A DNA stretch of 7,638 nucleotides from Verrucomicrobiota bacterium (GTDB taxonomy: Bacteria; Verrucomicrobiota; Verrucomicrobiia; Chthoniobacterales; UBA6821). Shown here in pieces: positions 374-6,320 of the stretch (its first letter is position 1; the number at the start of each line of letters is the position of its first letter). The notes beneath the pieces were generated by a model, which saw only the letters and a program-made list of their open reading frames with translations, was not told the origin of the DNA and did no database searches. A program made the translations under genes and the position numbers. The DNA is taken from NCBI GenBank assembly GCA_016871655.1, contig VHCR01000061.1, positions 1 to 7,638 on the forward strand. The letters are read 5' to 3'.

Positions 374-1225
374 ATGATTTTTTTTTCGACAACTATTACA
401 ACTCCCACAGCCGTCTCTCCCTTTCTAGATTTTAGCAATCCGGCATTATGGACACCGATTGCAATTGGAGGTTTTGCTCTCTTAGCTCTTGCGCTTCTTT
501 TTTATGGATGGCTTGGTTCTCGCGTTTTAAAAAAAGCAACTTTACCCCAACAGCCATTCACTCTTGTTGATGTTGGCGTGGCTTCTCTCCTCGCAGCGTG
601 GCTGATTTGGGTGATTAGCACTTCTTTTGGCAAAGATGAAGAAATTAATTTAACCCTCATTGCCCTAAACTCACTCCTCTATTTTTGTTTAGTCGGTGGT
701 ATCGCAGGACTTCTCTATTTTCGGAACCTCAAACCCGTCACGCTTTTTGGCCTTCACCCGCCGCATTTTGGAACAACCATCAAGTTGGCGTTTCTCTATT
801 TGCTGGCCGTTTATCCGCTCCTCATTCTGAGCCAGTCAGCAATTCAACCTTTCGTCCCCAATGAAAATGATGTTCAAACATTGGTTCTCTATTTTTTAAA
901 AAATCCGGGATGGAAAGAACGGTGTTCAATTATTGCTATGGCAACCTTGGTGGCGCCGATCGCCGAAGAATTTATTTTTCGCGGATATCTCTATGGCGTA
1001 GCGCGCCGCTTTCTAGGTCGGATTCCGGGCATTGCTATCAGCTCGGTTCTTTTTGCAGCAATGCACCTTCATTTGCCTTCGATGCCAGGGCTGACCGTGT
1101 TAGCTGTCATGCTCTGCTTGCTTTATGAGCGAACTGGGTCGCTCTGGTCCAACATTATTGTCCATGCAACGTTTAATACGATCTCGATTGTGATGCTGTT
1201 GATTTTTAAAGATGCGGTTTTATGA
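374..1225 (+). CDS. CPBP family intramembrane glutamic endopeptidase (CAAX prenyl protease 2/Abi type)
   Basis: This is a 283-residue polytopic membrane protein with about eight hydrophobic segments, at roughly residues 26-48, 64-83, 92-116, 137-156, 185-200, 218-233, 239-252 and 258-278. The three hallmark CPBP motifs appear in order: E198-E199-F-I-F-R203 (EExxxR), F227-A-A-M-H231 (FxxxH) and H264-A-T-F-N268 (HxxxN). All putative catalytic residues are present, so it is probably an active intramembrane peptidase. Family members process prenylated proteins in eukaryotes, or bacteriocin and regulatory substrates in bacteria; the substrate here is unknown. The ATG at 374 is the first plausible start, but it has no clear ribosome-binding site. 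The stop codon overlaps the thiL start (ATGA, 1222-1225), which implies translational coupling. That does not imply a role in thiamine metabolism. Family assignment is firm; function is not. Confidence 0.9.
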   Translation: MIFFSTTITTPTAVSPFLDFSNPALWTPIAIGGFALLALALLFYGWLGSRVLKKATLPQQPFTLVDVGVASLLAAWLIWVISTSFGKDEEINLTLIALNSLLYFCLVGGIAGLLYFRNLKPVTLFGLHPPHFGTTIKLAFLYLLAVYPLLILSQSAIQPFVPNENDVQTLVLYFLKNPGWKERCSIIAMATLVAPIAEEFIFRGYLYGVARRFLGRIPGIAISSVLFAAMHLHLPSMPGLTVLAVMLCLLYERTGSLWSNIIVHATFNTISIVMLLIFKDAVL

Positions 1226-2271
1226 ATGAGAATGAGCTTTTGAATCTCATTCGAAAAGAACTTCCACTTCATGATGATTCCATCATCGTCGGAAGCGGTG
1301 ATGATTGTGCTGTGGTGAAAATGAGTAAAAAAAATCTTGTTCTTAAAACTGATGCCACGATTGAAGGAATTCATTTTACGCATCAAGATGACCTCATTGA
1401 TATCGGCTGGAAAGCCCTCTGCAGGCCACTCAGCGACTTCGCTGCAATGGGAGCGATTCCACAACATGCCTTGATTACGGTTGCCGCTTGTGCTCATTGG
1501 AAAAAAGAAAACTGGTTACAGCTTGCTCGCGGTTTTGGAAAAGCGGCGCGTGCTTTTGGAGTTATCGTTGTCGGAGGCGAGATGGCACGTTCTCCCGAAA
1601 AACTTTTTCTTTCTGTCACGATCACCGGCTCTCCAGACTCTTCAACAGTACTTCGCAGCGGAGCCAAGCCCAATGACCTCATCTGCGTGACTGGAAAATT
1701 AGGAGGCTCTTTGAAAAGCGGACGTCATCTCACCTTTCAACCTCGATTAAAAGAAGGTCAATGGCTGGCAGCACAAAGAGAAGTTCACGCTATGATGGAC
1801 TTGAGCGATGGCCTTGGGAGCGATCTCCCACGTCTGGCGCAGGCAAGCAATTGCTCGTTCATTTTAGAAAAAGAAAAAATTCCGCACCATGAAGGCTGCA
1901 GTATCGAAGAAGCCATCAGCGATGGAGAGGATTATGAACTTCTTTTCACCGTTGCTCCAGAAACATGGCCAGCTCTCCAAAAAAAATGGAAACAGCAATT
2001 TCCTAAACTTTCTCTCAGTTGCATTGGCAAAATGATTTCTTCAACCCAGATATTTCATGGTGATTCTTCGCGAGGTGTAGCCCAGCGTGATGCAGACAAG
2101 GCGGACGAGGAGTTTGGCGAGGGGCTGTACTCAACATACCGCCCAAGCCAAAATCAGAGTCCAACGCAGTCTGCATCAGGCTCTCGCAAGTCACAGCAGA
2201 CTCACCGTGAAGTATTCGGGTTAACCTCTTCCTCTAGCCCCTTACCAAAAGGTTTTGATCACTTTGAATAA
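1222..2271 (+). CDS. thiL: Thiamine-monophosphate kinase ThiL, carrying an in-frame palindromic-element insertion near its C-terminus
   Basis: ThiL phosphorylates thiamine monophosphate with ATP to give the cofactor thiamine diphosphate, in the cytoplasm. The AIRS-kinase motifs are in order: G-S-G-D-D at 24-28, D-A-T-I-E-G-I-H-F at 44-52, L-S-D-F-A-A-M-G-A at 70-78, V-G-G-E at 117-120, R-S-G-A-K-P at 145-150, V-T-G-K-L-G-G-S at 156-163, D-L-S-D-G-L-G-S-D-L at 193-202 and S-D-G-E-D-Y-E-L at 233-240. The linker after residue 163 is shorter than in E. coli ThiL. The C-terminal strand C-I-G-K (267-270) is normally followed within about 25 residues by G-[FYW]-D-H-F. Here G-F-D-H-F is at 344-348, because residues of about 275-334 are encoded by palindromic element A (2043-2222, 180 bp = 60 codons). 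The insert is hydrophilic and rich in S, Q, R, D and E. The preserved frame and canonical end suggest a tolerated insertion rather than a broken gene. The start is coupled to the CPBP gene through ATGA. Confidence 0.95.
   Translation: MNENELLNLIRKELPLHDDSIIVGSGDDCAVVKMSKKNLVLKTDATIEGIHFTHQDDLIDIGWKALCRPLSDFAAMGAIPQHALITVAACAHWKKENWLQLARGFGKAARAFGVIVVGGEMARSPEKLFLSVTITGSPDSSTVLRSGAKPNDLICVTGKLGGSLKSGRHLTFQPRLKEGQWLAAQREVHAMMDLSDGLGSDLPRLAQASNCSFILEKEKIPHHEGCSIEEAISDGEDYELLFTVAPETWPALQKKWKQQFPKLSLSCIGKMISSTQIFHGDSSRGVAQRDADKADEEFGEGLYSTYRPSQNQSPTQSASGSRKSQQTHREVFGLTSSSSPLPKGFDHFE
2043..2222 (+). mobile_element. Palindromic MITE-like element A, inserted in frame in thiL
   Basis: The left arm (2043-2063) and right arm (2202-2222) are inverted repeats matching at 17 of 21 positions: AACCCAGATATTTCATGGTGA-type against its complement. 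Inside is a perfect 10-bp stem, TGATGCAGAC (2088-2097) with GTCTGCATCA (2169-2178). Further in, TTTGGC (2113-2118) pairs with GCCAAA (2147-2152), with additional G/C pairing towards the apex. The core motifs are ACAAGGCGGA (2096-2105) and AACGCAG (2163-2169). No transposase is encoded, so any mobility would need a protein supplied elsewhere. The thiL frame stays open throughout. Its arms and core match element B (2882-3064), including GATATTTCA at one end and a TGAA-x-TAT-x-C-x-GG-x-TAAC-like other end. Boundaries are set by the palindrome and may be off by a few bases. Confidence 0.75.
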
Positions 2272-2275
2272 AAAC

Positions 2276-2304
2276 TTGATACTGCTTTAAGATATAACTA
2301 AAGT
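2276..2304 (+). promoter_or_regulatory. Possible sigma-70-type promoter for the small secreted-protein gene
   Basis: TTGATA (2276-2281) and TAAAGT (2299-2304) are separated by 17 bp, immediately after the thiL stop codon. The -35 is a good match and the -10 matches at only four of six positions. The downstream GTG start is 47 nt away. The surroundings are AT-rich, so this may be chance. Confidence 0.25.
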
Positions 2305-2351
2305 TCGGCCTGTTTTTTACCGTCAACAACCCCAACCCCTCATCAAATCAA

Positions 2352-2822
2352 GTGAAACTCATAAAATTATTGTTCCTAGTATTTGCATTAAATTCGGCAG
2401 TCCTTTTTGCAGAAACGTTTACCTTTGCCGACAGCGGCAGTATGCAATTAGGAGACGCAGATCCAACACTCTTAGGTCCATGTTGTGTAGCTTGCCACGA
2501 TGGAGATACCGTCATTCTTCATAAGGGTTGCTCCCTTACAATTCAAGCCTCTACAAATCTTTCACCTAACACACCTCCATCAAAATCATTTTCATTCTAT
2601 TTTGATACTCACGAATATCTTATCGAAAATCCCATCCGTTATGCTAGCGACGACTCGGGTATTTACGACAACTTCTTTTTTTCTCGAATCAATGTCCTTG
2701 CTAAGGATTTAGGGCCAACAAAGCTCCACTTCGATACCATCACTGGAGATGGAAACCATCTTGAAGTCAAAAAAGAAACTATTACCATTATTGTTGATCC
2801 TGCAACTGAGCCTACGGCTTAG
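2352..2822 (+). CDS. Small secreted protein of unknown function with a Cys cluster (CCVACH)
   Basis: The product is 156 residues and I do not recognise the family. Residues 1-20 (K-L-I-K followed by a hydrophobic stretch ending A-V-L-F-A) look like a Sec signal peptide cut before E21. The mature part is about 136 residues. It contains C44-C45-V-A-C48-H49, which matches the CxxCH heme-c pattern, and a fourth cysteine at C60. The remainder alternates short hydrophobic and polar runs and ends with T-I-T-I-I-V-D-P, as in a beta-sandwich or Ig-like periplasmic domain. In such a fold the cysteines could simply form disulfides. The start is GTG at 2352: an in-frame stop lies at 2295-2297, and no other start between gives a sensible signal peptide. 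No good Shine-Dalgarno is visible. The gene lies 80 bp after thiL, between palindromic elements A and B. Confidence 0.65.
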   Translation: MKLIKLLFLVFALNSAVLFAETFTFADSGSMQLGDADPTLLGPCCVACHDGDTVILHKGCSLTIQASTNLSPNTPPSKSFSFYFDTHEYLIENPIRYASDDSGIYDNFFFSRINVLAKDLGPTKLHFDTITGDGNHLEVKKETITIIVDPATEPTA

Positions 2823-2845
2823 CCATTGACTAGGATTAAAGAATG

Positions 2846-2874
2846 AGATCAGTGGTCTGTTTTCAATTTTTAAT
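2846..2874 (+). terminator. Weak possible terminator after the secreted-protein gene
   Basis: AGATC (2846-2850), loop AGT and GGTCT (2854-2858) form a 5-bp stem with one G-U pair. It is followed by GTTTTCAATTTTTAATTT. The stem is short, so termination would be weak. The larger hairpin of element B starts just downstream. Confidence 0.25.
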
Positions 2875-2881
2875 TTTCTAC

Positions 2882-3064
2882 TAGCACGGATATTTCATTA
2901 CGCTCGCGACGAGAAAGTCACAAAGGCTGATGGAGCAAGGCAGGAGAAGAGTTTTGATACAAGGCTCTATGCCTGATGCTTGTCCAAATCAAAATTCAAG
3001 CCTAACGCAGCACCGATCGGCCCTCACGACTTTTCTCAGTGGAGAGAGTGAAATATCCTGGCTA
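2882..3064 (+). mobile_element. Palindromic MITE-like element B, abutting the comEC stop codon
   Basis: The ends are TAGC-AC-GGATATTTCA (2882-2897) and TGAAATATCC-TG-GCTA (3049-3064). GGATATTTCA is repeated perfectly in inverted form, and the outer TAGC/GCTA also pairs. Further in, GAGAAAGTC pairs with GACTTTTCTC (one bulge), and GGCTGAT near 2926 pairs roughly with the GATCGGCC side near 3014. The core motifs are GCAAGGCAGGA (2935-2945) and AACGCAG (3004-3010). The whole aligns with element A in arms and core. It encodes no credible protein. It lies between the convergent secreted-protein gene and comEC, where its hairpin could act as a bidirectional transcription barrier. That role is inferred. 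Confidence 0.7.
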
Positions 3065-3067
3065 ACT

Positions 3068-5356
3068 CTAATTTTTCTTAAAAATTGAAAATTGAACCCT
3101 GCCCCCATTGGTGATTTCAATGGTAACAGCTCCTGTCTCTTCTTGATCAAATAGCATAATGTTGTAACGCTTCAACATTTCTTGCTCTTCGTTAAAAATA
3201 GGACCGTGCAACGAAAAGGATTCCGGTAAAATTAAAAACTTAGGTTTTATTTTTTCCAAGAGTGGCTCGTATTTCAAAAGACTCGTTGGTCTCCATGCAA
3301 AATATAAAACGTCCGCAGAGAGCACCTCAGGAGAAGCTGTCTTGAAAAGCCACTCAGCAACACTGGAATTGGGAACAATAAAAATATTTTCTTGTGAGCA
3401 ATGGATGTTGAACGCAAAGGGAGGCATGTTTGCTGGCGCAAAAAATTCACCCCAACATTCTTTAGAAAAATTGAGTCGCCTTGGAAGCGGCATACAGTCT
3501 TGATGTGAAGACTGACATGATTTTAAAAATTGATGAAATTGAATGCCACGTCCAGGATTGGAGGGAGCAAAAATGAACCGCGGTTTCTCTTTTTCCAAAA
3601 GTAAAGAAGCACCACCAACACTTCCTGCCTCTGTTTGCGTGAGAACTAACCCTTCGAGATGAGAGACTCCAGCTTGCTCCAAAAAAGGAACGAGCGTCTT
3701 TGCGGCCTGCATGGTTCGAGCAGCGTTGATCACCCAAATTTTCCCTTCGCTCTGCATTACGATGGCTTGCGCCTCAGAAAAATCAAAAATCGTGATTCGT
3801 GGATGAGCTGGAGAGAAGGCAAGTGAAAAAGAACTCCACGGTAAAAGCGCAAAGCCATGAACAACGAGAATCAACATTTTGACAAAAACCCAATTGGCAT
3901 TATTAAAAATGGCGGCACCAGAAGAAGTGAGAAGACCAGCACTGATAGAGAGTAGCGCTGTCAACATGATGAGAAAGGCAAGTGGAACCGCAATCACATT
4001 AGCACCCAACGCTGAAAAAGAAATTTGATGAAAGTAGTAAGCCGTTGGCACAAATGCCCCAATCCATGCAGCGATTGAAACAGCGAGAAGCTGAGCCACG
4101 TGTTTCGCGATATGTTGCCAGCGTTGTTGCCAGCGAGTAATGAGTTTTTTTGGAAGGAAAGGATCGAACTCAAAATATTTTCCAAAACATTTCTCTAACG
4201 GTGAGGTCAAAAGAACAATGGCTAGCACCACTGAAAAAGAAAACTGCCATCCCATAGAAAAAAGAAGATTAGTATCAAAGAGAAGTAGTAAAAAAGCGGC
4301 TGCGGCAAGGTTGTTAAGAATTTGCGGTCGTCGCTCTAACAAAAATCCGATCAAGACAATCGCCGCCATCACGCCCGCCCGCAGGCTTCCCACATGACAT
4401 CCAGTGATCATGACATAAGAAAAAAGAAACACGAGCGTCACTGGAACTGCAATTCGAAGTGACAAACGCAGCAATTTCAAAAAAAACCAAATCATCATCA
4501 CCATCATTCCGACATGCAATCCACTCACCGCAAAAAGATGCATCGTTCCCGTCAGTTTGAAATCGTCGAGTAGCGTTTCGTTTTCTTTGACGCCAAGAAC
4601 AATTCCTTTGATGACACTCACGACAGCTTGATCACTCTCAATGCCACATTCCAAGAGCTTCTCCGCACGCTCTCTCCACGCAATTGCCCAACGTTTCAGA
4701 AAAAAACCGCGATTTGAGGAAACGATCTTTCCTGGTTCCGATGGATCCATCATTAGTTCCGTACAAACTTCCTGACGTGCTAACCATGCAGCCTTATTAA
4801 ACTCGCCTGGATTTTTGGGAAGGGATGGCGACTGCGCCGTTGCTCGCAAGGAAACAAGATCACCGTATGCAGGCAATACTCCCTCCCAATGAACAAGCAT
4901 AGTCACGTTGGGCGTCAACGTTCTGAAATTCCATTCCAACTGCTCCGTCTTGATAAAAAAAGTGATATGATTTTTTCCAACATGCTTGACTTCGCTCGTT
5001 ACTACGCCTCTCACCAGCATCGTGCTGTTGCTATTGTTGAGAAGCAAGGCGAGCCGCTTCGCTGGAGCTTCTTCCCATTGCCAGGCATGAACGATTCCAA
5101 AAAAAAGCATGACCAATAAAAAACAAATCGGCAGTCGCCAGCGTCGCACTATCAACCATCCTGCGAAGACGCCTAACATTCCCAACATTAAAGACCAGCT
5201 CGGCCACTGAAAAATTTCTTCAAATAAAACCCCTACCATCGCCACCAGAAGGAGTCCTACAAAAGGAAGGCGTTTTTTATTAAAAAAATTAACCACAAAG
5301 AAATCAAAGAAAATAAAAGTACCGAGTGGCGAGTAGCGAGTTTTTAAGATCAACAA
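3068..5356 (-). CDS. comEC: ComEC/Rec2-family competence protein with a degenerate metallo-beta-lactamase-like domain
   Basis: ComEC forms the inner-membrane channel that takes single-stranded DNA into the cytoplasm during natural transformation. The longest frame is 762 residues. Three N-terminal hydrophobic segments (about 31-45, 54-70, 75-91) precede an OB-like DUF4131 region, marked by Y-G-D-L-V-S-L (164-170) and N-P-G-E-F-N (182-187). The Competence-domain core follows, with G-T-M-H-L-F-A-V-S-G-L-H-V-G (270-283), G-C-H-V-G-S-L-R-A-G (319-328) and several membrane spans up to about residue 507. The C-terminal part (about 520-755) has the layout of the usual beta-lactamase-like domain but lacks its active-site motifs: F-D-F-S-E-A-Q-A stands where DVGQGDA is expected, V-I-N-A-A for LIDTG, and T-Q-T-E-A-G-S-V-G-G (573-582) for THPDADHIGG. 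The start is uncertain. The longest frame begins with TTG inside a short repeat and has no ribosome-binding site. GTG at 5296 (residue 21) is an alternative that keeps the first membrane segment. The stop codon is 3 bp from element B. Confidence 0.92.
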   Translation of the reverse strand: MLILKTRYSPLGTFIFFDFFVVNFFNKKRLPFVGLLLVAMVGVLFEEIFQWPSWSLMLGMLGVFAGWLIVRRWRLPICFLLVMLFFGIVHAWQWEEAPAKRLALLLNNSNSTMLVRGVVTSEVKHVGKNHITFFIKTEQLEWNFRTLTPNVTMLVHWEGVLPAYGDLVSLRATAQSPSLPKNPGEFNKAAWLARQEVCTELMMDPSEPGKIVSSNRGFFLKRWAIAWRERAEKLLECGIESDQAVVSVIKGIVLGVKENETLLDDFKLTGTMHLFAVSGLHVGMMVMMIWFFLKLLRLSLRIAVPVTLVFLFSYVMITGCHVGSLRAGVMAAIVLIGFLLERRPQILNNLAAAAFLLLLFDTNLLFSMGWQFSFSVVLAIVLLTSPLEKCFGKYFEFDPFLPKKLITRWQQRWQHIAKHVAQLLAVSIAAWIGAFVPTAYYFHQISFSALGANVIAVPLAFLIMLTALLSISAGLLTSSGAAIFNNANWVFVKMLILVVHGFALLPWSSFSLAFSPAHPRITIFDFSEAQAIVMQSEGKIWVINAARTMQAAKTLVPFLEQAGVSHLEGLVLTQTEAGSVGGASLLLEKEKPRFIFAPSNPGRGIQFHQFLKSCQSSHQDCMPLPRRLNFSKECWGEFFAPANMPPFAFNIHCSQENIFIVPNSSVAEWLFKTASPEVLSADVLYFAWRPTSLLKYEPLLEKIKPKFLILPESFSLHGPIFNEEQEMLKRYNIMLFDQEETGAVTIEITNGGRVQFSIFKKN
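5323..5341 (+). repeat. Heptamer tandem repeat CGAGTGG-CGAGTAG-CGAGT, left arm of a 12-bp inverted repeat
   Basis: Two and two-thirds units of a CGAGT(G/A)G heptamer lie within the extreme 5' end of the longest comEC frame. The last 12 bases, CGAGTAGCGAGT (5330-5341), recur perfectly inverted at 5754-5765. The pair brackets elements C and D. Short CGAGTAG-like satellites are probably replication-slippage products, but their inverted placement around the element pair is notable. Confidence 0.6.
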
Positions 5357-5381
5357 TAAATCCGTTTTTCGAAGTTTTGAT

Positions 5382-5387
5382 TTTATA
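5382..5387 (-). promoter_or_regulatory. Possible -10 box formed at the end of element C, pointing at comEC
   Basis: On the minus strand the end of element C reads CACTATA and continues into AAATC, producing TATAAA (5387-5382) about 30 nt before the longest comEC start. No good -35 lies 17 bp upstream. Correia elements of Neisseria are known to supply promoters from their ends. Transfer of that role to this element is inferred. Confidence 0.25.
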
Positions 5388-5548
5388 GTGTATTAAATTG
5401 AAAAGGGCATGTTAGAAGCGCTGAAATTTTTTCTTAGAACAAGGCCGAAGATCGAAGCGCTATCCGAAGATAACGTGAGATCTGAGAACGCAGCTCTAAG
5501 GAAAAAGAGCAAGCTTATCGCGTGCACTTTTCAATTTAATACACTATA
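5384..5548 (+). mobile_element. Palindromic MITE-like element C with Correia-like terminal inverted repeats
   Basis: The ends 5384-5405 and 5527-5548 are a perfect 22-bp inverted repeat beginning TATAGTGTATTAAATT. An inner stem pairs TTTTTTCTTAGA (about 5427-5438) with TCTAAGGAAAAA (5495-5506), with one mismatch. The core motifs are ACAAGGCCGA (5439-5448), followed by AGATCGAAGC, and AACGCAG (5487-5493). From memory, the Neisseria Correia element has ends starting TATAGTGGATTAA, is about 100-155 bp long, inserts at TA, and contains ACAAGGCGACGAAG and CAACGC inside. This 165-bp copy matches that plan closely. No transposase is present. A 109-codon open frame crossing C and D (5409-5738) is a by-product, not a gene. 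Confidence 0.8.
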
Positions 5549-5706
5549 TACCATCTTCACTCATTATCTAGACTATAGAGCTTGTTCTTATTGGCATCTG
5601 ACTGCGTTGTCATCACTTACGTTACAAAAGGTAGCGCTCGTTCTTCCGCCTTGTCAGCTGCGAAAACTTCTGCTCTCTATAGTCCAGCTAATTGATAAAG
5701 ATGGTA
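5549..5706 (-). mobile_element. Palindromic MITE-like element D, inverted core orientation, adjacent to C
   Basis: The element starts TACCATCTT and ends AAGATGGTA. The 30-base arms 5551-5580 and 5675-5704 are inverted repeats matching at 24 of 30 positions, including the 10-bp GACTATAGAG / CTCTATAGTC. Inside, CTGAC (5599-5603) pairs with GTCAG (5653-5657). The core motifs lie on the minus strand: ACAAGGCGGA (5654-5645) and AACGCAG (5608-5602). The order is therefore the same as in A-C but in opposite orientation. It begins immediately at the last base of element C. The arms are unrelated in sequence to those of A, B or C. No credible protein is encoded. Confidence 0.72.
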
Positions 5707-5753
5707 TTAGAGTCAATTTTCAAAATAAGCATCCGTAAAAAAATTGTCTCAGG

Positions 5754-5765
5754 ACTCGCTACTCG
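5754..5765 (-). repeat. Right arm of the 12-bp inverted repeat bracketing elements C and D
   Basis: ACTCGCTACTCG is the exact reverse complement of 5330-5341, 412 bp away. The flanking 5707-5753 and 5766-5807 hold nothing else I can identify beyond an 8-bp palindrome, AGAGCTCT, at 5785-5792. No clear terminator follows the lipoprotein gene, which ends at 5808. Confidence 0.55.
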
Positions 5766-5807
5766 AAACCCGTTACTTCTCCTCAGAGCTCTTTGTGGCC
5801 AATTTCT

Positions 5808-6320
5808 TTAATTAAAAGAAAACGGGCTGTAGCATGACTCCTCATACGCCGAGTCATACCAATCATCAACGATCGGCTCGTTGTAGAAGAATGGTTGCTT
5901 ATCTTGATTCAACATTGAATTATCTCGGATATATTTTGGAACCTTTGAGCCTCTAGACGGAGTTGTGTTGTTTCCATAAAAACCTTGGGTCTCGGTCAGG
6001 TAATTGAGCACTTGCGGTGTTGCTCCGAGGTGACGTAATTGTTGCAATTGTTCATACGAAAAATTGTAAACACGTTCCGTGTTCCGCAAATAACCAACGA
6101 TGATGTTCGAAGGAACCTTATGTTGTACGAGTTGAGCAATGTCATTGTAATCGAGCACTCCTCCTCGCAACATCTTTTCATAGGTCACTCCCGAAACCCC
6201 ATCGGCACTCACTGCCGAGGTCACCTGAGGATCAACCGTAGGTCCAGTCGCACAGGCAGAGAGAAAAAGAAGAAAAAAAATTCCTCCAAAAATTGTTAAA
6301 AAAGATTTGATTTTTTTCAT
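5808..6320 (-). CDS. Small lipoprotein with a pseudo-repeated helical domain, function unknown
   Basis: The product is 170 residues. It has a lysine-rich start, a hydrophobic stretch (about 6-20) and a lipobox L20-S-A-C23, so C23 should be lipidated. Alanine at +2 suggests outer-membrane or surface sorting by the E. coli rule. Residues of about 56-109 contain two similar halves: L-D-Y-N-D-I-A-Q-L-V-Q-H-K-V-P-S-N-I-I-V-G-Y-L, then F-S-Y-E-Q-L-Q-Q-L-R-H-L-G-A-T-P-Q-V-L-N-Y-L. The same pattern (DI-x-x-LV, then I-x-x-LR with G-V/A-T/S-x-x-V) occurs, as I recall, in uncharacterised envelope proteins of Verrucomicrobia and Planctomycetes. The tail (about 112-170) is N/S/Y-rich and probably disordered, with a conspicuous acidic-aromatic stretch near 150-161. 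The ATG at 6320 gives a proper signal sequence; no strong ribosome-binding site is seen. It lies upstream of comEC on the same strand but is separated from it by elements C and D. Confidence 0.85.
   Translation of the reverse strand: MKKIKSFLTIFGGIFFLLFLSACATGPTVDPQVTSAVSADGVSGVTYEKMLRGGVLDYNDIAQLVQHKVPSNIIVGYLRNTERVYNFSYEQLQQLRHLGATPQVLNYLTETQGFYGNNTTPSRGSKVPKYIRDNSMLNQDKQPFFYNEPIVDDWYDSAYEESCYSPFSFN

What the first reader, a model, noticed from the sequence alone, without database searches (positions are those of the whole stretch)
2043..5706. Four palindromic elements with a shared two-motif core but mostly unrelated arms
Elements A (2043-2222), B (2882-3064), C (5384-5548) and D (5549-5706) each contain (A/G)CAAGGC-x-GA and AACGCAG in the same order, about 40-70 nt apart. 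An inner stem flanks the motifs and terminal inverted repeats enclose it. The arms of A/B, C and D do not resemble one another, yet each pairs with itself. Four copies make up roughly 9% of this window. Conserved core plus self-complementary variable arms suggests a non-autonomous family whose core is recognised by one enzyme or protein and whose ends have diversified. The core agrees with what I recall from Correia elements, but A, B and D look like other lineages of that superfamily.
Basis: partly seen in the sequence, partly recalled or inferred. Interest (0 to 1): 0.82.

Follow-up and report, generated by a model that had tools for sequence, protein, structure and literature searches.

The report
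Correia-type mobile hairpins outside Neisseria
Four short palindromic mobile DNA elements sit in this bacterial stretch; two of them share a conserved hairpin core with the Correia repeats of Neisseria, and the other two carry the motifs of that core. They are likely moved by at least two different borrowed transposases, and one lies in frame inside a vitamin-synthesis gene, where it would add 60 amino acids.

Summary
A, B, C and D fold far better than shuffles (z -8.0, -5.6, -8.8, -6.4), and the motif pair occurs 46 times in the genome against 0 for the reversed pattern. They are miniature transposons (MITEs) of three families.

C is a near-identical 165-nt family with TA at both ends. Its end matches an IS630-type insertion sequence of a sister species at 24 of 26 bases and the published Correia end at 18 of 20. 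D instead duplicates three bases, TNA, in 26 of 27 end pairs, so a second transposase is likely. Taking C out of the window restores TTA on both sides of D.

A covariance model of the C/D-type core, built without Neisseria sequence, finds 10 places in a gonococcal chromosome; all 8 inspected are Correia elements. The core varies by paired changes.

A lies in frame inside thiL; the three sister genomes with a thiL match lack it. Relatives of A lie in frame in other genes, phenylalanyl-tRNA synthetase among them, as Rickettsia palindromic elements do.

A and B match the core model weakly or not at all. Partner transposases for A and D were not found.

The parts
2042..2223 (+). Element A: 182 nt including terminal dinucleotides (CA left, TA right); TIR ACCCAGATATTTCA / TGAAGTATTCGGGT; net 180 nt (60 codons) in frame inside thiL
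   Evidence: fold z -8.02; ThiL of G005, G001 and G002 lacks it
2096..2169 (+). Core of A: ACAAGGCGGACGA ... AACGCAG
   Evidence: covariance model R1 16.5 bits, E 0.012
1222..2271 (+). thiL (thiamine-phosphate kinase), interrupted in frame by element A; its own tail SSPLPKGFDHFE follows the element
   Evidence: TIGR01379 213.1 bits, over its cut-off, matched to residue 276; PF00586 and PF02769; alignment of four ThiL
2882..3064 (+). Element B: same family as A by its ends (TAGCACGGATATTTCA / TGAAATATCCTGGCTA); between the ORF 2352-2822 and comEC
   Evidence: fold z -5.60; aligns with A-type cores; R1 9.5 bits, E 1.1, not above background
5384..5548 (+). Element C: Correia-type MITE, TIR TATAGTGTATTAAATTGAAAAG, TA duplicated at 5384-5385 and 5547-5548
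   Evidence: fold z -8.82; R1 95.8 bits, but its family is a seed of R1
5439..5493 (+). Core of C
5549..5706 (-). Element D: TIR TACCATCTT / AAGATGGTA
   Evidence: fold z -6.35; R1 79.7 bits, itself a seed of R1
5602..5654 (-). Core of D
5707..5709 (.). Right 3-bp target duplication (TTA) of D; the left copy is restored when C is taken out
   Evidence: family-wide TNA duplication

Best explanation
The four elements are miniature transposons (MITEs) of three families built round a hairpin core that C and D share with the Correia elements of Neisseria and that A and B likely share; each family is likely moved in trans by whichever transposase recognises its ends, an IS630-type enzyme for C and probably a different, TNA-duplicating enzyme for D. 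Shown: the repeats, the folds, the paired changes in the core, the TNA duplication of D, the TA insertion of C inside D's duplication, an IS630 element with nearly the same ends as C in a sister genome, and the in-frame insertion of A in thiL with empty sites in three relatives. Inferred: that the IS630 transposase acts on C; that D uses an IS5-like (ISL2/IS1031-type) enzyme, an assignment recalled from the TNA duplication; that A/B use another TA-targeting enzyme (TA flanks seen, not counted); and that the core is kept because some host or element factor binds the folded strand (RNA, or single-stranded DNA at a fork) or because the RNA hairpin shields the transcript. A-type copies would survive in genes because they are 60 codons long and mostly stop-free in the one phase that a TA insertion into an NTA codon gives, on either strand.
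For: C: 29 full copies with 29 different left flanks, median identity 98.2% (mean 95.7%, lowest 60.6% because copies were compared without gaps). Its TIR agrees with an IS630 TIR of G004 at 24 of 26 bases; that element's two overlapping ORFs carry PF01710 and PF13358. A closely similar, broken IS630 in the own genome lies inside a C copy at TTCAATT-TA-ATACAC with TA duplicated. D: 26 of 27 end pairs have the same three bases (TAA 13, TTA 11, TCA 2; permuted mean 11.8, maximum 20 in 20,000). In the window, taking out C restores TTA/TTA. Core: 15 of 23 pairs change on both sides; 92.0% of cells pair against 74.6% in shuffles and at most 42.9% when slid. The model finds the core in 41 of 213 genomes of the order, in 13 of 387 of the phylum and in Correia elements. 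A: alignment of four ThiL; in a PheT the element is residues 191-251, TIGR00472 matches in two stretches, the best from residue 260 (profile 200), and another PheT model matches 21-192; PF02446 runs in one stretch across the element of a 4-alpha-glucanotransferase.
Against: No movement was observed. R1 recovers only 10 places in a gonococcal chromosome, although more than 120 Correia copies are reported (PMC10969869, passages), and it missed the long 157-bp form in L240. In the window B scores below matches that are no element. Of 13 loci chosen for A-type copies, four A-type cores reached E 0.0013 to 0.14, while a stretch outside any A element (L136 798-901) reached E 0.044. No autonomous partner was found for A or D. 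PF13358 found no IS630 transposase in G001, G002 or G003, which also carry the elements. Paired changes in palindromes can also arise from template switching between arms. Codon positions of A-type copies show no third-position excess, so the peptide itself is not visibly selected.
Confidence: 0.75

Rival explanations
1. One enzyme recognises the folded core itself (a REP/RAYT-like or integron-like single-strand recombinase) and the ends are passengers.
For: Unpaired core positions are strongly conserved while stems change in pairs, as expected for a recognised fold.
Against: TA and TNA duplications differ by family; an IS630 element shares C's ends. No search for RAYT or tyrosine recombinases was run.
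Confidence: 0.1
2. The core is a regulatory RNA hairpin (RNase III substrate or mRNA stabiliser) whose effect on neighbouring genes keeps the copies, as reported for Correia elements.
For: RNase III processing is reported for Correia (PMC2649163 and PMC10969869, passages). Of 23 analysable C copies none is inside an ORF; 15 lie between genes in one direction, 7 between convergent and 1 between divergent genes.
Against: A low divergent count is also what avoidance of promoters gives. Near-identity of C copies points to recent spread rather than selection at each site. No transcript data.
Confidence: 0.25
3. A/B are unrelated to the C/D/Correia core and only resemble it in two short motifs.
For: R1 scores are weak for A (E 0.012) and at background for B (E 1.1); a non-element stretch scores like the A-type cores except L083. 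The A/B core is about 20 nt longer and its inner stem differs. I raised this from 0.2 to 0.25 on rechecking.
Against: About 15 fixed bases in order, at the same place in the hairpin, with a reversed control of 0 in each same-genus genome; best A-type match E 0.0013.
Confidence: 0.25
4. The Correia similarity is recent horizontal transfer of one element rather than an old superfamily.
For: The C TIR is 18 of 20 identical to the published Correia TIR.
Against: Gonococcal matches score only 24-34 bits, and matches outside the own family in the phylum 33-55 bits, against 74-100 bits within the genus for most listed ones: the cores are well diverged.
Confidence: 0.15

Closest known systems
Correia element / CREE / NEMIS of Neisseria
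   Same: End (C: 18 of 20 bases), TA ends, directional core found by R1, palindromic, high copy
   Different: C is 165 nt against 104-108 or 153-157 bp; host is not Neisseria; an IS630 element with matching ends exists in a sister genome; A/B and D have other ends and D another target duplication
RUP of Streptococcus pneumoniae with IS630-Spn1
   Same: MITE with TA target whose ends match an IS630 element (PMC2229807, passages)
   Different: RUP is reported there to have stops in all six frames; sequences were not compared here
Rickettsia palindromic element (RPE)
   Same: A-type copies are palindromic, in frame and inside conserved protein genes
   Different: 180 nt net against 105-146 bp (PMC2229807, section 9); sequences not compared; host not Rickettsia
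Correia-like MITEs of Candidatus Thiomargarita nelsonii
   Same: Described as TATA-ended hairpins most similar in structure to Correia elements (PMC4853749, passages)
   Different: Sequences were not compared here; one lies in a group I intron
ERIC / RU-1 of enterobacteria
   Same: MITE with an open frame (PMC2229807, passages)
   Different: 7-bp TIR; not compared in sequence

Membership tests
Correia/CREE (element C) | End TATAG[CT]GGATTAAATTTAAA | tested here: met
   18 of 20 identical; best other 20-mer of the window 14 of 20 among 15,234
Correia/CREE (element C) | TA target duplication | tested here: met
   TA on both sides; removal of 163 nt restores D's TTA
Correia/CREE (elements C, D) | Conserved directional core | tested here: met
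   R1, without Neisseria seeds, finds 10 places in NZ_CP119140.1; 8 of 8 fetched are CREE. Of 5 viral contigs chosen by the CREE end, 4 hold a CREE by rule and R1 finds it in 3; L238 and L239 give the same match
Correia/CREE (element C) | Length 104-108 or 153-157 bp | tested here: not met
   165 nt; so called Correia-type, not Correia
Correia/CREE | Found only in Neisseria (as stated in PMC2649163) | tested here: not met
Correia/CREE | IHF site, promoters, RNase III cleavage | not tested
Correia superfamily (A, B) | Core recognised by the model | tested here: inconclusive
   A E 0.012, B E 1.1
IS630-derived MITE (element C) | Ends shared with an IS630 element and TA target | tested here: met
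   24 of 26; PF01710 and PF13358; TA duplication of the broken copy
IS630-derived MITE (element D) | TA duplication | tested here: not met
   TNA, 26 of 27 end pairs
IS5-type (ISL2/IS1031) MITE (element D) | Partner IS with the same ends | tested here: inconclusive
   3-bp TNA fits (recalled); no flanking pair of D ends among 20 PF01609 loci
RPE (A-type) | In-frame insertion in conserved protein genes | tested here: met
   ThiL, PheT and MalQ
RPE (A-type) | Length 105-146 bp | tested here: not met
   net 180 nt; not filed as RPE
RPE (A-type) | Sequence relationship to Rickettsia RPE | not tested
   sequences not compared

The most novel reading that the evidence does not exclude
The hairpin core is a transferable module in its own right: a structured sequence, common to Neisseria and Verrucomicrobiota-like bacteria, that rides on MITEs with unrelated ends and different transposases, and that has in one lineage become an in-frame, protein-coding insert of essential genes. 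It would do a job common to all of them, such as binding one conserved host factor.
Probability: 0.4. Interest if true: 0.82.

Novelty: new variant of a known kind. Interest (0 to 1): 0.66.

Why it matters
Correia repeats were first described in 1986, and the 2009 CREE paper says that their mobilising mechanism was undetermined and that they were found only in Neisseria (PMC2649163, passages); a 2016 paper reports MITEs of similar structure in Thiomargarita (PMC4853749, passages). A Correia-type family with a matching IS630 element in a sister genome makes the transposase question directly testable. A fold conserved across families that use different target duplications says the core is not just filler between ends. 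In-frame copies in thiL and pheT give a system outside Rickettsia in which to study how palindromic selfish DNA is tolerated inside proteins.

Tried and rejected
Rfam at gathering thresholds: 0 matches in the window. IS1380 (PF13701) as partner of A: 0 of 6 genomes over cut-off, 1 match below it. PF01609 as partner of D or A: 20 loci, matches in 7 of 8 genomes; D-, A- or C-like ends occur near several (L268, L271, L273, L276 most clearly) but not as a pair flanking the transposase; the IS in L274 has TTAGCCCG termini but a different continuation. D and A ends without a near partner in 216 loci (87 of 139 and 41 of 227) showed no clear autonomous element by eye. C against plasmids: no match. 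Stretches of the viral contigs against phages: no match. Alignment A2 had wrong coordinates and mixed orientations and is not used; in A3 one row is cut short. Named thiL relatives (80 loci) were used only as a lead to the host: the best is a Planctomycetota MAG at 38% identity, which settles nothing.

Papers: eight searches. In the titles and abstract beginnings listed I saw none that describes this family; most subscription papers are not held, and only the passages named were read.

Rows dropped: 42 A-type hit positions without a recognisable core could not be oriented and were left out, leaving 64 raw and 56 unique copies. In one search, 34 of these 56 came from a translated search and are biased to open frames; the 22 found otherwise include 10 of 182 nt, open in the key frame on the + strand in 5, on the - strand in 9, on at least one in 10 of 10, and 0 of 10 in the other four frames; 12 of the 22 have other lengths. 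In one search, 23 C copies had enough flank to be classed.
Full report
Observation. The four elements are present at the stated places (inverted repeats). Each folds as one long hairpin, with 0 of 200 shuffles as stable in each case. The motif pair occurs 46 times in the own genome, 0 for the reversed pattern. Of 38 genomes searched, 22 have a match, but in most genomes beyond the genus the counts are like those of the reversed control; convincing there are the five same-genus genomes (6 to 53 matches each, control 0), G018 (5, control 0) and G022, where four of six matches are one alike sequence.

Families. C: 29 full copies with 29 different left flanks, median identity 98.2%. At least a dozen further or cut copies lie at contig ends (places, lengths), so the true number is probably higher; the end sequence with up to one mismatch has 111 matches. 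A-type (A and B): ends TA-RCCCGGATATTTCA, about 182 nt. D: ends TACCATC. A fourth end type (CTAGTGTCCAGTC) carries the same core in G022, another family of the order.

Insertion. A broken IS630 element lies in a C copy of the own genome with TA duplicated, TTCAATT-TA-ATACAC. IS630 elements with PF01710 and PF13358 occur in G004; one has the end TATAGTCAATTAAATTGAAAAGGGCA, 24 of 26 bases as in C. PF13358 was found in 3 of 6 genomes of the genus. D duplicates TNA: 26 of 27 end pairs agree, where permutation gives 11.8 on average and never more than 20 (typed from the list); the exception is G018:C75. In a smaller set read by eye, 15 of 19 agreed. One D copy lies inside an IS630 transposase gene of G005. 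In the window the two events are stacked: without C, D is flanked by TTA on both sides, so D came first and C entered the TA at its edge. TNA is the duplication I recall for the ISL2/IS1031 groups of IS5; no partner was found.

Core. Thirteen cores of the C, D, G022 and one further type align with 26 invariant columns, many of them in loops, while 15 of 23 pairs change on both sides. The model R1 from these, with no A, B or Neisseria sequence, finds 41 of 213 genomes of the order at E 0.001 or better (15 of 45 genera; at most 20 candidates scored per genome, strict filters) and 13 of 387 of the phylum at E 0.0001 or better (at most 11 candidates scored per genome). Its calibration is short, so E-values are rough. 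On five viral contigs chosen by the published Correia end it gives four matches at E 2.3e-5 to 8.4e-4, in three of the five, two of them identical; by rule four of the five hold a complete Correia element. The repeat of L238 matches best two Neisseria gonorrhoeae records, at 99.1% and 94.8%, among 57 plasmid-collection records. On the gonococcal chromosome NZ_CP119140.1 it gives 10 matches at E 4.8e-5 to 0.02; all 8 that were fetched are complete Correia elements. Since over 120 copies are reported, sensitivity is low, but specificity is striking. A scores E 0.012 in the window and B 1.1, which is background. Of 13 loci chosen for A-type copies, four A-type cores reach E 0.0013 to 0.14, and a stretch outside any A element reaches 0.044. 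So A/B belong by motif and position rather than by model score.

In-frame copies. ThiL of G005, G001 and G002 lacks the segment that A adds, and the tail SSPLPxGFDH resumes after it in G005; no thiL match was listed for G003 and G004. The translated element is found at many other places in G000 and G002 to G005. In one search, twenty-four element-ORF cases have at least 100 aa outside the element; 23 are read in the frame that begins right after the TA, and the window's case is the same frame, counted from a start one base further in. These are stop-to-stop frames: in several the element lies within the first tens of codons and may be upstream of the real start. In a PheT of G002 the element is residues 191-251; TIGR00472 matches in two stretches, the best from residue 260 on. 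A 4-alpha-glucanotransferase domain runs across its element. The PheT insert peptide recurs in 8 proteins of a 5.8-billion-sequence collection, the first being that PheT itself; one is named Chthoniobacterales, which is my main evidence that the host is a verrucomicrobium; the best named thiL relative was a Planctomycetota MAG at 38%. Of 41 copies of 182 nt, 32 are open on the core strand and 34 on the other in this frame and 0 in the other four, but 31 of the 41 were found by translated search; of the 10 others, 10 are open on at least one strand. Because the element is a palindrome, the two strands are not independent. Six divergent representatives show no third-position excess of variation, so only openness, not the peptide, looks kept.

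Position of C. Of 23 copies with enough flank none is inside an ORF; 15 lie between genes in the same direction, 7 between convergent and 1 between divergent genes. Simple ORF calling was used.

What is known. CREE: inverted ends, target duplication, conserved core, mobilising mechanism undetermined, found only in Neisseria according to PMC2649163 (passages). RUP with IS630-Spn1, and the open frame of the 107-bp Correia form fused to genes: PMC2229807 (passages and section 9), which also summarises RPE. Correia-like MITEs in Thiomargarita: PMC4853749 (passages). So MITEs moved by IS630 and in-frame MITEs are known kinds. New here, as far as these searches show, are a Correia-type family with a likely transposase outside Neisseria, the same core on ends with a different target duplication, and an in-frame lineage that carries the core motifs.

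Verdict. Ordinary in kind (MITEs), unusual in what is shared. The mechanism of movement for C is well supported by anatomy; that of A and D and the role of the core remain inference.

Noticed in passing
window 5274-5341 and 5754-5817: Outside C and D lies another inverted repeat (AGTACCGAGTGGCGAGTAGCGAGT / ACTCGCTACTCGAAACCCGTTACTT and an AT-rich pair); a similar AGTAACGAGTAACGGGT palindrome is at L088 1209-1354.
   Followed up: no
L133 1001-1103 and L144 1435-2525: A further small element with ends TATAGTCAAATTACTTAGAAAT is nested in a C-type copy of G004; an IS630 element with the same ends is in L144.
   Followed up: partly
L274 1184-3197 (G004:C29): A large IS (594-aa ORF, PF01609) whose ends TTAGCCCGAGTTCCGC resemble the A-type end in the first bases only.
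   Followed up: partly
L273 190-1244 (G000:C20): An IS-like element with ends AGAGGGTGTCTTGAAA; the same start appears inside the broken IS630 of L088 near 2320.
   Followed up: no
L102 after 1569, L089 near 1635, G003:C1:8776-8847: A GC-rich stretch ending GGGAGCGAGCGAG interrupts or replaces parts of A- and D-type elements, perhaps another mobile hairpin.
   Followed up: no
L225 2017-2087: About 70-nt mini-palindrome with A-type ends and no core, possibly an internal-deletion derivative.
   Followed up: no
L196 1583-1944, L179 1680-2041: Two A-type copies side by side inside a single open frame, so the host protein would carry about 120 extra residues.
   Followed up: partly
L192 1367-4540, minus strand (G003:C108): A 1058-aa frame with two A-type copies; residues 99-207 match T2SS GspK below its cut-off.
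   Followed up: partly
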